Assembly (NCBI GenBank): GCA_945903645.1 | Contig: CAMDOM010000021.1 | Coordinates: 1-46,682, forward strand | Direction: 5' to 3' | Source: Chryseobacterium gleum | GTDB lineage: Bacteria; Bacteroidota; Bacteroidia; UBA10329 | Length of the DNA stretch: 46,682 nt | Part shown: in pieces, positions 30,571 to 36,840 of the stretch | How the letters are laid out: each line of letters opens with the position of its first letter | How positions within the stretch are numbered: the stretch's first letter is position 1 | Made by a program: the position numbers and the translations under genes | Notes under the pieces: generated by a model | Seen by the model: the letters and a program-made list of their open reading frames with translations, nothing else | Told to the model about the DNA's origin: nothing | Database searches by the model: none

Positions 30571-30599
30571 ATACCCTCGAAAGGGTATTGCCTCAGGCA
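30571..30599. promoter_or_regulatory. Two adjacent palindromes upstream of the iron operon
   Basis: ATACCCT-CGAA-AGGGTAT (30571-30588) is followed at once by TGCCT-C-AGGCA (30589-30599). They lie 59-87 bases before the DUF4856 start, in the promoter region shared with the divergent ispH. Confidence 0.45.
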
Positions 30600-30627
30600 A
30601 ATGTCCCCAATAAATTTGTCCCCTTAT

Positions 30628-30642
30628 TTAGAATCAATCTAA
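30628..30642 (+). promoter_or_regulatory. Putative iron-regulator operator
   Basis: TTAGA-ATCAA-TCTAA is an inverted repeat 16-30 bases upstream of the first gene of the iron-uptake operon. It resembles TTTAGAnTnnnTCTAAA-like sites seen near Bacteroidetes iron genes (DtxR/IdeR- or Fur-type regulators). The regulator assignment is an inference. Confidence 0.45.
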
Positions 30643-30657
30643 TTAACTAAATCAAGT

Positions 30658-31806
30658 ATGAGCAAGTTCAAACTACAACCAATTGTGCTGCTTGCAATGG
30701 CTTCAAGCACGTTGTTTATCTTTGGTTGCGATAACGAAACCGACCCCATAGATGAATTGGAAGTACCATCAACCTATGTGTTCACTCGCAATGGAACTAC
30801 CACTGTAGACTACGCTGGGCAAACCCAACGTTTGAATCAACTGGTATTAATGGTAGACTATATGAAAACGGCCAATGTGGCTGGTTCACCTGCCCTTGAT
30901 GGAGTGCTGTTGAAGAATATGTTTTCCAACACAGGAAATCCATTTGCGGGTTTCTCCTTTACCAAAGACCTTAAATCGAAATGTTTCGTTGCCGATGTTC
31001 CTCAACTAGAGGCATGGATGGACGAATTGGCTGCTGCGAGTGCATTGCAGCAGGAGGCCTCTGAGGGAGTTGCTGGTTTGCTCGTGCAAGGCAGTGTAGA
31101 CCCAACAGTAGGCTATTTGGTTAATGCCAACGGAATTCAACTAGCAGAAGTGATAGAAAAGAGTGTGATGGGAGGTGTATTTTTCTTTCAAGCTATGGAA
31201 ACCTACCTCTCGGTAGACTATATGGAAGAGTTGAACAACGACAGTTTGGTAGAGTTGACTAACTACACCAACATGGAACATTATATGGATGAAGCCTTCG
31301 GTTACGTTGGCATTCCCGTAGATTACCCATCGCTTACAACGATAGATGAAGCCCGATTTTGGGGTGAGTACATTTCTGCGCGCAACGAAGGGTTGTATCT
31401 CGGAATTGCAAGTGAATTTGCCACAGCATTTCGTACAGCTAGGGCTGCCATTGCGGCTAAAGACTACCAATCACGGGATGATGCAATTCAAACCATTCAA
31501 GAGAAATGGGCAATTGTGATAGCTGCCTCTGCGGTTGACTATCTAAGCGCATCGTTGAGTACCGAAGGACTTCCTGTTTATAGAAAAAATCATAAGTTGA
31601 GCGAGGCTATAGGCTTTTGTATTGCGTTGAAGTATCATTTTAATGGTGGAAATTCTAAGTTCTCTCCCAGCTATAATTATCAATCTATACAACAAGCGTT
31701 GGATTTAATTGGCCCAACTTCGAACCTTTATGCCGTGGACGATGTTGCTATAAATTCGGCAATTCTTAAGTTAAAGGAGGCGTTTCCGGTAGATGTTATC
31801 AAGTAA
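30658..31806 (+). CDS. DUF4856 lipoprotein, imelysin-related
   Basis: 382 aa with a lipoprotein signal (FIFGCDN, Cys24). The mature part is helical with conserved DUF4856 blocks: YVFTRNGTTTVDYAGQTQRL at the start, KNMFSNTGNPF, NMEHYMDEAFGYVG, and ARFWGEYISARNEGLY. DUF4856 is related in fold to imelysin (M75), whose members sit in iron-regulated loci and probably bind iron or a siderophore rather than cut peptides. It leads an operon with an imelysin-like lipoprotein, an HTTM protein and a TonB receptor, and lies behind a putative iron operator. It may be anchored in the outer membrane facing either side. Confidence 0.82.
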   Translation: MSKFKLQPIVLLAMASSTLFIFGCDNETDPIDELEVPSTYVFTRNGTTTVDYAGQTQRLNQLVLMVDYMKTANVAGSPALDGVLLKNMFSNTGNPFAGFSFTKDLKSKCFVADVPQLEAWMDELAAASALQQEASEGVAGLLVQGSVDPTVGYLVNANGIQLAEVIEKSVMGGVFFFQAMETYLSVDYMEELNNDSLVELTNYTNMEHYMDEAFGYVGIPVDYPSLTTIDEARFWGEYISARNEGLYLGIASEFATAFRTARAAIAAKDYQSRDDAIQTIQEKWAIVIAASAVDYLSASLSTEGLPVYRKNHKLSEAIGFCIALKYHFNGGNSKFSPSYNYQSIQQALDLIGPTSNLYAVDDVAINSAILKLKEAFPVDVIK

Positions 31807-31812
31807 TTAAGA

Positions 31813-31858
31813 AGCGAAAACGTGCTGCTAAACCCGAATGCGAAAGGGTATTTTCGCT
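31813..31858 (+). promoter_or_regulatory. Intercistronic stem-loop between DUF4856 and imelysin genes
   Basis: AGCGAAAA (31813-31820) pairs with TTTTCGCT (31851-31858), and ACCC (31832-31835) with GGGT (31846-31849) inside it. It fills most of the 89-base gap and could protect or separate the two halves of the transcript. It also repeats the 12-mer CGAAAGGGTATT found at 30578-30589. Confidence 0.4.
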
Positions 31859-31895
31859 CGACTTTCAAATGTTGAATTTATATAAATCTAAATAG

Positions 31896-33005
31896 TTGAA
31901 AAAGTACCTTATACTTGGAGTAATGCTAGCAATGGGTAGCTCGGCATGTGATACCGATGGCCCAGAAGAAGTGAACTGCGATTTCGATTTGCAGGCGATG
32001 CGCACTAATTATGCGGATGAAATAATTGTCCCCAAAGTTGAGCAGTGGTATACTTCCACACAGTTGCTTGCAGCCATGGCAGCCCAGTATGCGAGTGCAC
32101 CAAGCGAACCAAATTTGGTTGAATTGCGCATCATGTGGTACGCTTCCTATAGAAGCTATCAGGCGGTTTGTGCATTTGGCTTTGGACCTGGTATTATTGA
32201 AGGTTTAGCCTTTCGCGAATATGTCAATACTTTTCCAACCAATGCTGTTTTAATAGATGGCTATCTGGCAAGTGGAGCGGTAGACGCAACACTCAATCCG
32301 AATACTACAGTAGGTTATCCAGCGTTAGAATATCTCATTTTTGGTCCAATTGGCACTTCGCAAGCAGATGTTGTTGCTGCCTACACAAGTGGTGCGGATG
32401 CAGCCAGCAGAGCCGCCTACGTGGTTTCATCAGCGAATCGCATTAGCGCTATTGCCCAGCAGCAGGTGGATGGTTGGGAAACCTATAAGTCCACGTTTAT
32501 AAACAGCACTGGAACAGCAGAAGGAAGCACGTTGTCGCTTTTGGTAAATGAATTGAACTACGATTTGGAGATATTGAAATCGTTCAAATTCAAAATCCCG
32601 CTGGGAAAGTTTAATGGCGGTGTGGCGCTTCCAAATCAGGTTGAAGGATACTATTCTGGGGGAACTGCCGCGTTGGCGATTGACCAATTTAATTCCTTTA
32701 GGTCAATTTACTTTGGAGTGGGATTGGATAATAGTGATGGTTTGGGTCTGCACGATTACTTGCTATGCCTAAAAGCTGGGCAAGATGCTGACGGGCTATT
32801 GGCCGATGCCATTGCCGATAAGTTTCAAGACATGGAGGATGCCATGTTGCTGCTGCAAGATCCAATGGCCGAGCAATTGGTTACAGCGAAGCCAACCGTG
32901 GATGCCGCTTATCTTCAAATGCAAATGATGACTCCGCTTTTAAAGCGCGAAATGGCATCGGCATTGGGTATTCAAATTTCCTATCAAGATAATGATGGCG
33001 ATTGA
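31896..33005 (+). CDS. Imelysin-like lipoprotein
   Basis: 369 aa beginning at TTG (MKKYLILGVMLAMGSSAC), lipobox with Cys18. It is all helical, with the imelysin duplicated-bundle pattern (FDLQAMRTNYADEIIVPKVEQWYTST; MWYASYRSYQAVCAFGFGP). At the place of the family motif GxHxxE it reads G-Y-P-A-L-E-Y-L, with His replaced by Pro, so metallopeptidase activity is unlikely and a binding role is favoured. Homologues are iron-regulated lipoproteins in marine Bacteroidetes and in bacteria with EfeO-type uptake. The stop overlaps the HTTM start (TGATG). Confidence 0.85.
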   Translation: MKKYLILGVMLAMGSSACDTDGPEEVNCDFDLQAMRTNYADEIIVPKVEQWYTSTQLLAAMAAQYASAPSEPNLVELRIMWYASYRSYQAVCAFGFGPGIIEGLAFREYVNTFPTNAVLIDGYLASGAVDATLNPNTTVGYPALEYLIFGPIGTSQADVVAAYTSGADAASRAAYVVSSANRISAIAQQQVDGWETYKSTFINSTGTAEGSTLSLLVNELNYDLEILKSFKFKIPLGKFNGGVALPNQVEGYYSGGTAALAIDQFNSFRSIYFGVGLDNSDGLGLHDYLLCLKAGQDADGLLADAIADKFQDMEDAMLLLQDPMAEQLVTAKPTVDAAYLQMQMMTPLLKREMASALGIQISYQDNDGD

Positions 33006-34402
33006 TGATGCTCACCACGTGGGTTAAACGAGCATCTCAGCACATGAATCGTCAAGTGGACAGCGCTCCCTTGGCGGTTCTTCGCATTCTTTTTGGAGTG
33101 ATGATGTTGTTGGGAACGCTCAGATTTATGGCCTATGGTTGGGTGGATGAATTGTATGTTTTGCCCAAATATCATTTCACCTACTATGGTTTCGAATGGG
33201 TGAAACCGTTTGGAGAAACGGGCATGTGGCTCGTATTTGGCACTATGGTCTTGACAAGCGCGTTCATTGCTTTAGGTTTCATGTTTCGAGCCTCGGCCCT
33301 GCTTTTTTTCCTGTTGTTCACGTATGTAGAACTCATAGATGTGACCAACTATTTGAACCACTACTATTTCATTAGTCTATGCAGTTTTTTGTTGCTGCTT
33401 TCTCCAGCTGGTAAAACGTTTTCGATAGATGGAAAGCTGTTTCCAAACCACCGAATCGCCACTGTTCCTTTTTGGAGCATTGGAATGTTTCGTCTACAGT
33501 TGGGCATTTTGTATGTGTTTGCGGGCATAGCCAAAATCAATTATGACTGGATGATGTGGGCGCAACCACTTTCCATTTGGTTTGTGAGTTTCAGAGAAGT
33601 ACCGCTTGTGGGTGGGCTCTTTCAACTTAAAGAAACAGCTTACGTTTTTAGTTGGGCAGGTGCATTATATGACCTAACCGTTCCATTCTTTTTACTCTGG
33701 GCACCTACACGAATTTGGGCATACCTCACCGTTGTGGGGTTTCATTTCATTACATGGCTCATGTTTCCAATTGGTATGTTTCCTTGGGTAATGATGGTGT
33801 TTACTTGGGTGTTTTTTCCTATTGCTTTTCATCGCAAATTGATAGATAGAATAAGGAAAATGTTTAGTGGCAATAAAATTAGATTGGTAGAAAAAAGCCT
33901 TACATCAATTCATTCTTCTTCCAAAACCTCGGTATCTTCATTCCTTAATTCCTTAATTCCGTTAGTTCTCGTGGTGTTCTTCGCAGTGCAGCTTTTTCTG
34001 CCTTTGCGCCATTTCTTGTATCCAGGAAATTTGTTTTGGACCGAGCAGGGTTATCGTTTTTCATGGCGCGTAATGCTGATGGAGAAAAATGGCTTTGCGC
34101 AGTTTAAGGTGAGCGACCCTGAAACGGGCAAGCAATGGGAAATTCACAATACCCATTATCTTACTCCTCAACAGGAAAAAATGATGAGTACGCAACCCGA
34201 TTTATTGCTTCAATTTGCGCACATTTTGGATAACGAATTTCAAAGCATAGGGGTGGCAAATCCCATTGTGACTGTCGATGTGCAAGTTTCATTGAATGGC
34301 AGACGTAGTCGACCATTTATCAATCCAAATGTTGATTTGTCATCTTTAAGTGATTCATGGAGCCCCAAAACATGGATACTTCCTTATTCTAGAGAATTAT
34401 GA
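33005..34402 (+). CDS. HTTM-domain membrane protein (gamma-carboxylase-like)
   Basis: 465 aa from ATG at 33005 (two tandem ATGs and a TTG make the exact start uncertain). There are about seven or eight membrane helices in the first 300 residues with HTTM/vitamin-K-dependent-carboxylase-like blocks (APLAVLRILFGVMM, VELIDVTNYLNHYYFISL, FRLQLGILYVFAGIAKINYDW). A soluble C-terminal part (about 325-465; FSWRVMLMEKNGFAQFKV) corresponds to the YSWRVML region of that family. In the vertebrate enzyme this fold carboxylates glutamates; in bacteria the reaction is unknown. Its place between an imelysin and a TonB receptor is a recurring arrangement in Bacteroidetes as far as I recall, so it may modify or process part of an iron-uptake system. 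It overlaps the next gene by four bases. Confidence 0.87.
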   Translation: MMLTTWVKRASQHMNRQVDSAPLAVLRILFGVMMLLGTLRFMAYGWVDELYVLPKYHFTYYGFEWVKPFGETGMWLVFGTMVLTSAFIALGFMFRASALLFFLLFTYVELIDVTNYLNHYYFISLCSFLLLLSPAGKTFSIDGKLFPNHRIATVPFWSIGMFRLQLGILYVFAGIAKINYDWMMWAQPLSIWFVSFREVPLVGGLFQLKETAYVFSWAGALYDLTVPFFLLWAPTRIWAYLTVVGFHFITWLMFPIGMFPWVMMVFTWVFFPIAFHRKLIDRIRKMFSGNKIRLVEKSLTSIHSSSKTSVSSFLNSLIPLVLVVFFAVQLFLPLRHFLYPGNLFWTEQGYRFSWRVMLMEKNGFAQFKVSDPETGKQWEIHNTHYLTPQQEKMMSTQPDLLLQFAHILDNEFQSIGVANPIVTVDVQVSLNGRRSRPFINPNVDLSSLSDSWSPKTWILPYSREL

Positions 34403-36840
34403 AAAGGTTCTATTTCCTTTTCATGCTGCTCTTAAGTATTCTTTCTGCCAATGCGCAGCGGGTCTCATTTCAAGGTATTGTGACCGATGCAGATGGCAAA
34501 GCCTTGTTTGGAGTAACTGTTCATGCTGCGGGAATTGAACAGAGTGTTTTTACTGATGAAGAAGGTTTCTATCGCATTGTGGGAATCAATCCAGGCCCAG
34601 TGAAACTAACCTTTTTTCAGCCAGGATTTAAAAAAGTAGAGCAGATAATTGACACCAAAAGTGGTAGACAAACCGTGAACATCAAGCTTGAACCATTGAC
34701 GGTAGATATGCAAGATGTTGTGGTGAAAGCAGAAGGTAGAAAGGAAGAAAAACCTATGACGCGTTTGAAAGCGGTAGATGGGTTTGGGATTTATGCAGGA
34801 CGTAAGACCGAAGTAATCCAAATGACCAACATCAACGCAAACCTAGGCGCAAGTCGCGCAAGGCAAGTATTTGCCCGCGTTGCAGGTCTCAATATTTGGG
34901 AGTCGGATTGCTCGGGCATTCAACTTGGCGTTGGTGGACGAGGTTTGAGTCCAAGCAGATCCGAAAACTTTAACACCCGTCAAAATGGGTATGACATTGC
35001 TGCCGATGCGTTGGGCTACCCGGAAAGCTACTATTCGCCACCAATGGAAGCCGTAGAAAAGGTGGAAGTGGTGCGTGGTGCGGCTTCATTGCAGTATGGT
35101 CCACAATTTGGAGGCATGTTAAACTTCGTTCTGAAGGATGGTCCAGAAGCAAAAAAGTTTGAAGTGGAAAGCAGACAAACGTTGGCTTCCTACGGGTTTT
35201 TCAACTCGTTTAATTCCATTGGAGGTACAGTGGGTCGATTCCGGTACTACACATTCCTTCAATATCGTATAGGCAATTGCTGGCGGTGCAATTCTGAGTT
35301 CGATAGCTATTCGGCCTATGGTTCAATTTCTTACACCGCACCCAATGGCACATCGGTGCGTGCTGAATATACTCGACTTTGGTATTTGGCGCGGCAAGCA
35401 GGTGGATTGACCGATGCGCAGTTTGAACAGGACGCACAGGCTTCCTATCGTACACGAAACTGGTTTAGCATCGACTGGAACTTATTTTCGTTGAGTGTTA
35501 ATCATGCGTTCAATGATAAATCTAAACTCAATTTTCGTGCATTTGGAGTGGTGGCTTCACGTGATGCGTTGGGTTTTCTTGGGTCTCCAGATCAAGCGGA
35601 TCCTATTAGCAATCCAAGTTCGCCCGCTTATCTTTCTAATAGAGATTTGATTTCTGGACGATTCAGAAACTTTGGTGTCGAGATTCGGCAATTACAGCGG
35701 TACTCTATTGGAAGTCAACCTCAAGTTCTTTTGATTGGATTGCGGGTGTATCGCGGGCAAACCACCAATAGGCAAGGCGCGGCAAGCGCGGGCAGCAATG
35801 CCGATTTTTCGTTCATCGATGTAGAAGATGATGAGGCATCGTCCAATCACCCAAGTTTTAATGGGGCATTGTTTGCCGAGCATGTCTTTAACATAACCAG
35901 CAAATTAAGTGTCACTCCAGGTTTCCGGGTTGAGTATATTCGAACGGGAACCGAAGGTCAAAGTAGACGCACCTATCGCAACTTGGCTGGCGATATAGTT
36001 CTTGATTCCATTACCTCCAACAATTTTGTAAAGGACCGTTGGTTCCCGCTTTTTGGGTTGGGAACCAGTTACCGCCCTTGGAAATTTTTTGAAGTCTATG
36101 CAAATGTTTCGCAGAACTACAAACCAATCAATTTCAATGATTTGTTTGTGGCCAATCCAAGTTTTCGCGTTGATCCAAACATGCAAGACGAAACAGGATT
36201 TAATGCCGACTTGGGAATAAGAGGCGAGTTTTTGCAATGGCTGAGTTACGATGTAACCTTCTTTTCAATGCTTTACAACAATCGTATTGGCTATATTCAA
36301 AAGCTCGATGAGGAGCTTTTTACCATTTATAGACTGCGAACAAATGTTTCCGATGCATTAACATTGGGAGTGGAGAGTTTGGTGGAGATTAACCTCTTGG
36401 GTATGTTTGGATATACAGGTCGCTGGAAAATGGGCGTTTATTCCAATTTTACTTGGCTTAGTTCGCGTTATATAAACTCAGAAGAAACTGCCTATGAAGG
36501 CAATCGCGTGGAACTAACACCCGAAATTCAGTTTCGTGGCGGACTAGATTTAGGCTTTAAACGCTTTTCGTTCACATCTCAAATTTCATACACTGGCAAT
36601 CAATACACCGATGCGACCAATGCCGAAAAAACAGGAAATGCGATAAATGGCATTGTTCCGGCATACTACGTTTGGGATTTAGGCTTGCGCTATAATCATG
36701 AAAAATGGCGCATTTCTGTTGGAATGGACAATGCTTTAGACCGCAGATATTTCACGCGAAGAGCCACTGGATATCCTGGCCCTGGCATAATTCCATCCGA
36801 AGGTAGGTCTGTTTGGTTAACGGTTGGATTACAGTTTTAA
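34399..36840 (+). CDS. TonB-dependent outer-membrane receptor, FecA-like
   Basis: 813 aa. A signal peptide (to about residue 20, SANAQ) is followed by a carboxypeptidase-regulatory-like domain (about 22-100; GIVTDADGKALFGVTVHAAGIEQSVFTDEEGFYRI). The plug domain (about 120-260) contains LGASRARQVFARVAGLNIWESD, GVGGRGLSP and VEVVRGAASLQYGPQFGGMLNF. A 22-strand-type barrel follows and ends in a terminal Phe (VWLTVGLQF). The plug motifs fit the FecA/iron-citrate or ferric-siderophore group. It is the last gene of the coupled four-gene operon and would be the outer-membrane gate for the substrate bound by the two lipoproteins. Confidence 0.92.
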   Translation: MKRFYFLFMLLLSILSANAQRVSFQGIVTDADGKALFGVTVHAAGIEQSVFTDEEGFYRIVGINPGPVKLTFFQPGFKKVEQIIDTKSGRQTVNIKLEPLTVDMQDVVVKAEGRKEEKPMTRLKAVDGFGIYAGRKTEVIQMTNINANLGASRARQVFARVAGLNIWESDCSGIQLGVGGRGLSPSRSENFNTRQNGYDIAADALGYPESYYSPPMEAVEKVEVVRGAASLQYGPQFGGMLNFVLKDGPEAKKFEVESRQTLASYGFFNSFNSIGGTVGRFRYYTFLQYRIGNCWRCNSEFDSYSAYGSISYTAPNGTSVRAEYTRLWYLARQAGGLTDAQFEQDAQASYRTRNWFSIDWNLFSLSVNHAFNDKSKLNFRAFGVVASRDALGFLGSPDQADPISNPSSPAYLSNRDLISGRFRNFGVEIRQLQRYSIGSQPQVLLIGLRVYRGQTTNRQGAASAGSNADFSFIDVEDDEASSNHPSFNGALFAEHVFNITSKLSVTPGFRVEYIRTGTEGQSRRTYRNLAGDIVLDSITSNNFVKDRWFPLFGLGTSYRPWKFFEVYANVSQNYKPINFNDLFVANPSFRVDPNMQDETGFNADLGIRGEFLQWLSYDVTFFSMLYNNRIGYIQKLDEELFTIYRLRTNVSDALTLGVESLVEINLLGMFGYTGRWKMGVYSNFTWLSSRYINSEETAYEGNRVELTPEIQFRGGLDLGFKRFSFTSQISYTGNQYTDATNAEKTGNAINGIVPAYYVWDLGLRYNHEKWRISVGMDNALDRRYFTRRATGYPGPGIIPSEGRSVWLTVGLQF

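What the first reader, a model, noticed from the sequence alone, without database searches (positions are those of the whole stretch)
30571..36840. Coupled DUF4856-imelysin-HTTM-TonB operon with an iron-type operator
The genes are close-packed: an 89-base gap after DUF4856, then TGATG and ATGA overlaps. A membrane protein with a gamma-carboxylase-like fold between imelysin-like lipoproteins and a FecA-like receptor suggests an iron or siderophore uptake system in which the HTTM protein does an unknown chemical or processing step. The imelysin motif His is replaced by Pro, so a binding role is likely.
Basis: partly seen in the sequence, partly recalled or inferred. Interest (0 to 1): 0.6.

Follow-up and report, generated by a model that had tools for sequence, protein, structure and literature searches.

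The report
Fur-controlled iron operon with carboxylase-like enzyme
Four neighbouring genes form an iron-controlled uptake operon that is conserved across Bacteroidota, and one of them encodes a bacterial relative of the human vitamin-K enzyme that activates clotting factors, with its catalytic residues intact, which gives that puzzling bacterial enzyme family a testable job in iron uptake.

Summary
DUF4856 (30658-31806), an imelysin (31896-33005), an HTTM/VKGC protein (33005-34402) and a TonB-dependent receptor (34399-36840) lie in tight order. The whole four-gene order recurs in 79 of 92 related loci. In an even sample of 296 genomes of the phylum, 61 of 62 operon-type HTTM genes sit directly behind the imelysin. 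The iron operator is a Fur box at 30626-30644, just behind a Bacteroidota promoter; it is not the palindrome at 30571. 68 of 79 DUF4856-led relatives have such a box and none of 8 stand-alone HTTM genes does. A published Riemerella transcriptome shows the same gene order induced 2.1-3.1-fold by iron shortage. Iron uptake is therefore well supported. The HTTM protein models closely on residues 41-509 of human gamma-glutamyl carboxylase (Z 30.6). It keeps the catalytic Lys218, His160, Asn159 and most of the quinone pocket, but lacks the C-terminal third, including part of the propeptide site. The best reading is a menaquinol-driven modifying enzyme, probably a carboxylase, acting on an operon protein to aid iron capture. 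That step is inferred: no substrate was identified, VKOR does not co-occur, and no acidic residue of the imelysin is specific to HTTM-linked copies.

The parts
30588..30590 (+). TTG, candidate -33 element of a Bacteroidota-type promoter, 20 bases before the -7 element
   Evidence: sequence read directly; consensus from general knowledge
30611..30618 (+). TAAATTTG, -7 element (TAnnTTTG) of a Bacteroidota-type promoter
   Evidence: the element lies 5-8 bases before the Fur box in 22 of 74 loci; 24 loci against 2.1 expected in shuffles have it near the box
30626..30644 (+). Fur box ATTTAGAATCAATCTAATT over the expected transcription start, 13 bases before the ATG
   Evidence: best match in the whole window and conserved in 68 of 79 DUF4856-led relatives against shuffles; one of few near-consensus sites in the genome; matches the Fur box of R. 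anatipestifer (PMC5609570)
30658..31806 (+). DUF4856 lipoprotein, 382 aa; conserved H208, D211, E212, H312, E316, K168, Y238; acidic stretch after the lipobox Cys suggests surface exposure
31896..33005 (+). IPPA-type imelysin lipoprotein, 369 aa (TTG start), motif GYPALE, invariant C-terminal DGD
33005..34402 (+). HTTM + VKGC-lumenal membrane protein, GGCX-like (ORF list starts at TTG 33002; ATG 33005 likelier)
33356..33361 (+). codons of N119-H120 (numbered from TTG 33002), equivalent to GGCX N159-H160 (Glu and quinone contacts)
33533..33535 (+). codon of K178 (numbered from TTG 33002), equivalent to the GGCX catalytic base K218
34399..36840 (+). TonB-dependent receptor with N-terminal CarboxypepD_reg domain, 813 aa

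Best explanation
This is a Fur-repressed iron-uptake operon. When iron is scarce, Fur leaves the box at +1 and all four genes are transcribed from the promoter at about 30588-30618. DUF4856 and the imelysin are lipoproteins, probably on the cell surface, that take part in capturing a ferric complex for the TonB-dependent receptor, which carries it across the outer membrane. The HTTM protein sits in the inner membrane with its active site facing the periplasm. It works like human GGCX: it binds menaquinol, deprotonates it with Lys178, and uses O2 to make a strong base that activates a carbon on an acidic side chain of an operon-encoded protein passing through the periplasm. The most likely product is a carboxylated Glu or Asp that binds iron better. 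Shown here: the operon, its conservation, the operator and promoter, the GGCX fold and the intact catalytic residues. Shown elsewhere, in a relative: the iron response. Inferred: surface exposure, the ferric cargo, carboxylation as the reaction, and a protein of this operon as the substrate.
For: Four-gene order conserved with no fifth conserved gene. Fur box in 68 of 79 DUF4856-led operons and 0 of 8 stand-alone HTTM genes, fixed spacing to the -7 element, a Fur protein in the genome, and another near-consensus box beside a SufA-like/SufB gene cluster. R. anatipestifer TBDR-VKGC-imelysin-hypothetical up 2.11-3.07-fold in low iron (PMC5609570 Table 4). HTTM model against GGCX: Z 30.6, 432 residues, rmsd 3.3, GGCX 41-509. 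K218, H160, N159, F286, H287, F299 and M402 equivalents invariant in 92 operon HTTMs, W223 in 91; their roles, H287 apart, are described in PMC12589487. HTTM is the most conserved of the three proteins aligned with these tools (mean column identity 56% against 41% and 30%).
Against: No VKOR found in this genome and no co-occurrence of VKOR with the operon (14 of 60 against 58 of 236, P = 1). Contacts for the peptide backbone and propeptide are not kept (N158 to L, R436 mostly M, Y425 mostly E; GGCX 510-758 absent). Y395 is Phe in 16 of 92. Every conserved acid of the imelysin is also found in HTTM-free copies. No carboxylation has been measured. The Riemerella Fur effect is modest (delta-fur/WT with iron 1.36-1.93), no box was listed for that operon, and its first gene was not verified as DUF4856.
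Confidence: 0.42

Rival explanations
1. Same Fur-controlled iron operon, but HTTM uses menaquinol for a different chemistry, such as reducing ferric iron released in the periplasm, so that it plays the redox part that the di-haem protein DHOR plays in the Pseudomonas-type imelysin operon.
For: Quinone-pocket residues are conserved. The Pseudomonas-type operon has imelysin-DHOR-imelysin, a redox enzyme in a comparable place (PMC3143127).
Against: L041, L045 and L128 carry DHOR and HTTM together, so HTTM is not a simple replacement. Residues that bind the Glu substrate in GGCX (N159, H160) would have no reason to be invariant.
Confidence: 0.17
2. Same operon, but HTTM performs a different modification of an operon lipoprotein or of the receptor (another C-H activation, a cross-link, or help in maturation) and makes no Gla.
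For: Other HTTM members are linked to maturation of secreted proteins (SdpB, from memory). The substrate-presenting part of GGCX is missing and several substrate contacts differ.
Against: The catalytic base and the Glu-binding pair are unchanged in 92 of 92.
Confidence: 0.25
3. HTTM is not an enzyme here but an inner-membrane permease that completes the route of iron into the cytoplasm, like EfeU in EfeUOB.
For: The operon otherwise lacks an inner-membrane step; imelysin domains work with the EfeU permease in EfeUOB (PMC3143127).
Against: GGCX fold and catalytic residues intact; the structure search finds only GGCX convincingly.
Confidence: 0.06
4. The operon imports something other than iron, such as another metal, and is only co-regulated by Fur.
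For: The ligand of the receptor and of IPPA-type imelysins is unknown; IPPA did not specifically bind ferric ion or haem in thermofluor tests (PMC3143127).
Against: Fur box and iron response, imelysin operons iron-regulated in other phyla, DUF4856 also in an operon resembling the iron-capture locus (L134).
Confidence: 0.1

Closest known systems
[quoted passage not shown]
   Same: Fold over residues 41-509, catalytic Lys218, His160, Asn159, Trp223, most of the quinone pocket (F286, F299, M402; F294 in 87 of 92)
   Different: No C-terminal third (510-758, with part of the propeptide-binding domain and the arch); N158, K217, Y425, R436, M401, N290 changed; no VKOR partner; substrate unknown
[quoted passage not shown]
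   Same: IPPA-type imelysin with the His-to-Pro motif; Fur control
   Different: DUF4856 usually in place of imelysin-DHOR, and an HTTM enzyme added before the receptor; L041, L045 and L128 are intermediates
RAYM_09794-09779 of Riemerella anatipestifer (PMC5609570)
   Same: Same order of annotations: hypothetical, imelysin, vitamin K-dependent gamma-carboxylase, TonB receptor; induced in low iron and listed as Fur-regulated
   Different: Sequence not examined here; first gene not verified as DUF4856; no functional study
Iron capture system (ICS) of Capnocytophaga canimorsus, as summarised in PMC5429918
   Same: DUF4856 occurs in a SusC/SusD-Peptidase_Mx1-DUF4302 operon of similar make-up in L134
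   Different: The window operon has no SusC/SusD pair; whether an Ics protein itself is DUF4856 was not checked

Membership tests
[quoted passage not shown]
   PF05090 2e-75 and PF22777 2e-57; Z 30.6 to GGCX
[quoted passage not shown]
   Invariant in 92 of 92 operon HTTMs
[quoted passage not shown]
   F286 and F299 invariant, W223 91/92, F294 87/92; the exception is M401, Val in all
[quoted passage not shown]
   Model ends at GGCX 509; Y425 mostly E, R436 mostly M
[quoted passage not shown]
   None found in own genome (95% complete); no co-occurrence in 296 genomes
[quoted passage not shown]
   needs biochemistry
IPPA/PA4372-type imelysin | Imelysin domain with GxHxxE His lost | tested here: met
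   PF09375 3e-27; Pro in 79 of 89; best solved relative 3pf0 (IPPA) 1e-8
Fur-regulated iron uptake operon | Fur box at the promoter, conserved | tested here: met
Fur-regulated iron uptake operon | Induction by iron limitation | not tested
   Only published data on a relative (PMC5609570)
PA4370-type imelysin-DHOR-imelysin operon | Di-haem oxidoreductase between two imelysins | tested here: not met
   Absent at the window operon; present with HTTM in L041, L045, L128
EfeUOB | EfeU permease and cupredoxin-imelysin fusion | tested here: not met
   No such domains in the four proteins
Imelysin fold for DUF4856 | Imelysin-like structure | tested here: inconclusive
   AlphaFold2 model pLDDT 89.6; no Foldseek match; an imelysin (4ecg) at Z 4.2 only

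The most novel reading that the evidence does not exclude
Bacteroidota carry out menaquinone-driven (vitamin K2) protein carboxylation: the HTTM enzyme makes Gla or beta-carboxy-Asp on a cell-surface iron-uptake protein, so that the chemistry of blood clotting factors has a bacterial counterpart used to bind iron.
Probability: 0.3. Interest if true: 0.92.

Novelty: new variant of a known kind. Interest (0 to 1): 0.62.

Why it matters
Bacterial relatives of the vitamin K-dependent carboxylase have had no clear role. This operon gives one clade of them a fixed partner set, a regulator (iron and Fur) and three candidate substrates, so the question of what they do can be tested with one deletion and one mass-spectrometry experiment. 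If carboxylation is shown, it would be an additional protein modification of bacteria and an iron-binding strategy not seen before in TonB systems, as far as I know. Even if not, a widespread Bacteroidota iron-uptake module is defined for which ten searches of the open-access paper library found no dedicated description.

Tried and rejected
Palindrome 30571-30588 as the operator: single copy in the genome, no likeness to Fur sites. A second operator between DUF4856 and the imelysin (31875-31893, score 17.7): sites scoring 14 or more in that gap occur in only 2 of 43 relatives with a gap of at least 45 bases. DUF4856 as an imelysin: profile comparison aligned only the N-terminal third, signal peptide included, and structure searches were inconclusive. 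VKOR as a partner: no co-occurrence. Oxygen dependence by distribution: none of the 13 genomes without haem-copper oxidase has the operon, but P = 0.08 and kinship confounds it. Imelysin as a dedicated carboxylation substrate: no acid specific to HTTM-linked copies, although only 5 HTTM-free copies were compared; DUF4856 gave a mixed result with 4 HTTM-free copies. A fifth operon gene: none. HTTM as a replacement for DHOR: both occur together. Leptospira: its iron-regulated imelysin locus is of the DHOR type in the papers read, with no HTTM mentioned. Solved relatives of the receptor: none at 1e-10. Annotated plasmid hits (Paracoccus, Bernardetia) show HTTM without imelysin neighbours.
Full report
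The observation. The window holds four genes in a row on the + strand: a DUF4856 lipoprotein, an imelysin lipoprotein, a membrane protein with an HTTM domain and the VKGC lumenal domain, and a TonB-dependent receptor. The receptor matches only general TonB and siderophore models, all below their curated cut-offs in NCBIfam, and has no solved relative at 1e-10.

Conservation. 80 named loci from the genome collection and 12 further loci from anonymous genomes carry operon-type HTTM genes. In these 92 loci the imelysin lies directly upstream in 90, DUF4856 in 82 and the receptor follows in 89; all four are in order in 79, and several of the rest are cut by contig ends. This set was chosen by similarity to the HTTM protein. 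The unbiased check is the even draw of 296 genomes of the phylum: 61 of 62 operon-type HTTM genes, in 60 genomes, have the imelysin within 400 bases upstream, and 46 of the 50 genomes with DUF4856 are among them. These counts are of related genomes and are not independent events, but the operon spans more than a dozen families. On a tree the operon-type HTTM genes form one clade (support 0.935) apart from 8 stand-alone paralogues and human GGCX. No other gene near the operon recurs in more than 7 of 80 loci.

The operator. The best match in the whole window to the Fur box published for Riemerella anatipestifer (PMC5609570) is ATTTAGAATCAATCTAATT at 30626-30644. Of 79 DUF4856-led operons, 68 have a site that beats all 30 dinucleotide shuffles of the same stretch; none of the 8 stand-alone HTTM genes does. 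The promoter element TAnnTTTG ends 5 to 8 bases before the box in 22 of 74 loci (in the window too), and 24 loci against 2.1 in shuffles have it near the box. The box therefore sits where transcription should start. The genome has one Fur protein and few near-consensus sites, against none for the reversed pattern; one lies beside a SufA-like gene with SufB nearby, others beside nqrA with a carboxypeptidase-regulatory-domain protein, and a LuxR-type regulator. The palindrome at the finding's own start coordinate, 30571-30588, occurs once in the genome and does not resemble the Fur box.

Published support. In R. anatipestifer the genes RAYM_09794, 09789, 09784 and 09779, annotated hypothetical, imelysin, vitamin K-dependent gamma-carboxylase and TonB receptor, are induced 2.4, 3.1, 2.6 and 2.1-fold in low iron and listed as Fur-regulated (PMC5609570 Table 4). 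In the passages read, that study tested other promoters by gel shift and lists no Fur box for this operon. The first gene was not checked here to be DUF4856. Ten searches of the paper library found no description of the module; most subscription papers are not covered.

The HTTM protein. Sequence search finds human GGCX over its residues 46-505 at 8e-44. The AlphaFold2 model (pLDDT 89, pTM 0.90) aligns with GGCX at Z 30.6, 432 residues, rmsd 3.3, covering GGCX 41-509. GGCX roles come from PMC12589487: the base Lys218, Glu-binding Asn159 and His160, and the quinone pocket. The equivalents of K218, N159, H160, F286, H287, F299 and M402 are invariant in 92 operon HTTMs; W223 is kept in 91 and F294 in 87; Y395 is Tyr or Phe. 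Not kept are N158, K217, M401, N290, Y425 and R436, and everything after GGCX 509 is absent. The reaction centre thus looks intact while the part that presents the substrate is different. In GGCX, K217 affects substrate binding and K218 catalysis, which fits this split.

The lipoproteins. The imelysin is of the IPPA/PA4372 type: His-to-Pro is the rule (79 of 89) and the last residues DGD are at the C-terminus in 88 of 89. HTTM-free copies from imelysin-DHOR-imelysin operons share the DGD end and the conserved acids, though one of five lacks the Pro, so the imelysin shows no acidic residue that looks specific to HTTM. DUF4856 has a confident model with no convincing relative among solved structures and conserved H208, D211, E212, H312 and E316, a possible metal site that could not be measured here. 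Both lipoproteins are enriched in acidic residues just after the lipobox Cys (3.0 and 2.1 in 7 residues, against 0.9 and 0.8 further in), as in lipoproteins exported to the surface of Bacteroidota (general knowledge).

Related arrangements. Three loci (L041, L045, L128) carry imelysin-DHOR-imelysin and HTTM-receptor together, which links this module to the known Fur-regulated imelysin operon of Pseudomonas and shows that HTTM does not simply replace DHOR. DUF4856 also occurs without HTTM in four sampled genomes, once in a SusC/SusD-Peptidase_Mx1-DUF4302 operon (L134) that resembles the iron-capture locus summarised in PMC5429918.

Mechanism. Iron uptake under Fur control I hold at about 0.9. 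That HTTM is an enzyme using menaquinol is likely (about 0.8). That it carboxylates a protein of the operon is the best single reading of the intact Lys/His/Asn set but is not shown; missing VKOR, missing propeptide site and lack of a marked substrate residue count against it. The confidence of 0.42 is for the full chain including a GGCX-like modification of an operon protein.

Verdict. It is a new variant of a known kind (a TonB/imelysin iron-uptake operon with a GGCX-type enzyme).

Noticed in passing
L134:1111-12075: DUF4856 in an operon with SusC-like and SusD-like genes, Peptidase_Mx1 and DUF4302, in a genome with no haem-copper oxidase hit (G230); resembles the iron capture system of Capnocytophaga.
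   Followed up: partly
L041:3309-13858, L045:220-7888, L128:6087-13199: Imelysin-DHOR-imelysin operons joined to HTTM and a TonB receptor, intermediates between the Pseudomonas-type operon and the window operon.
   Followed up: yes
window 32985-33002 and relatives: Imelysins of this type end in an invariant DGD (mostly DNDGD) at the very C-terminus, with or without HTTM nearby; its role is unknown.
   Followed up: partly
L113:7377-11100, L115: A second, stand-alone set of HTTM/VKGC proteins (about 30-37% identical to the window protein) in genomes of the window's class, beside FAD synthetase/riboflavin kinase and, in L113, seryl-tRNA synthetase genes, without Fur box or imelysin.
   Followed up: partly
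L136:5867-12579: TonB receptor, DUF4856, a 477-aa protein of no Pfam family and a flavin amine oxidase in a row, without HTTM.
   Followed up: no
L145:8915-10285: An operon-type HTTM gene without its usual neighbours, between PhoH-like and PEP carboxykinase genes; the same genome keeps an imelysin-DHOR-imelysin operon elsewhere.
   Followed up: partly
L165:5440-9831: Five tandem genes of 272-294 aa with similar N-termini downstream of a Fur-like site with two mismatches in the window's genome; family not determined.
   Followed up: no
window 30571-30588: Palindrome ATACCCTCGAAAGGGTAT just upstream of the promoter, single copy in the genome; could be a second regulator's site.
   Followed up: partly
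L163:3321-3982: A Fur box directly before a LuxR-type response regulator; response-regulator-like genes also lie just upstream of the operon in 5 relatives (e.g. L083, L087, L103).
   Followed up: no
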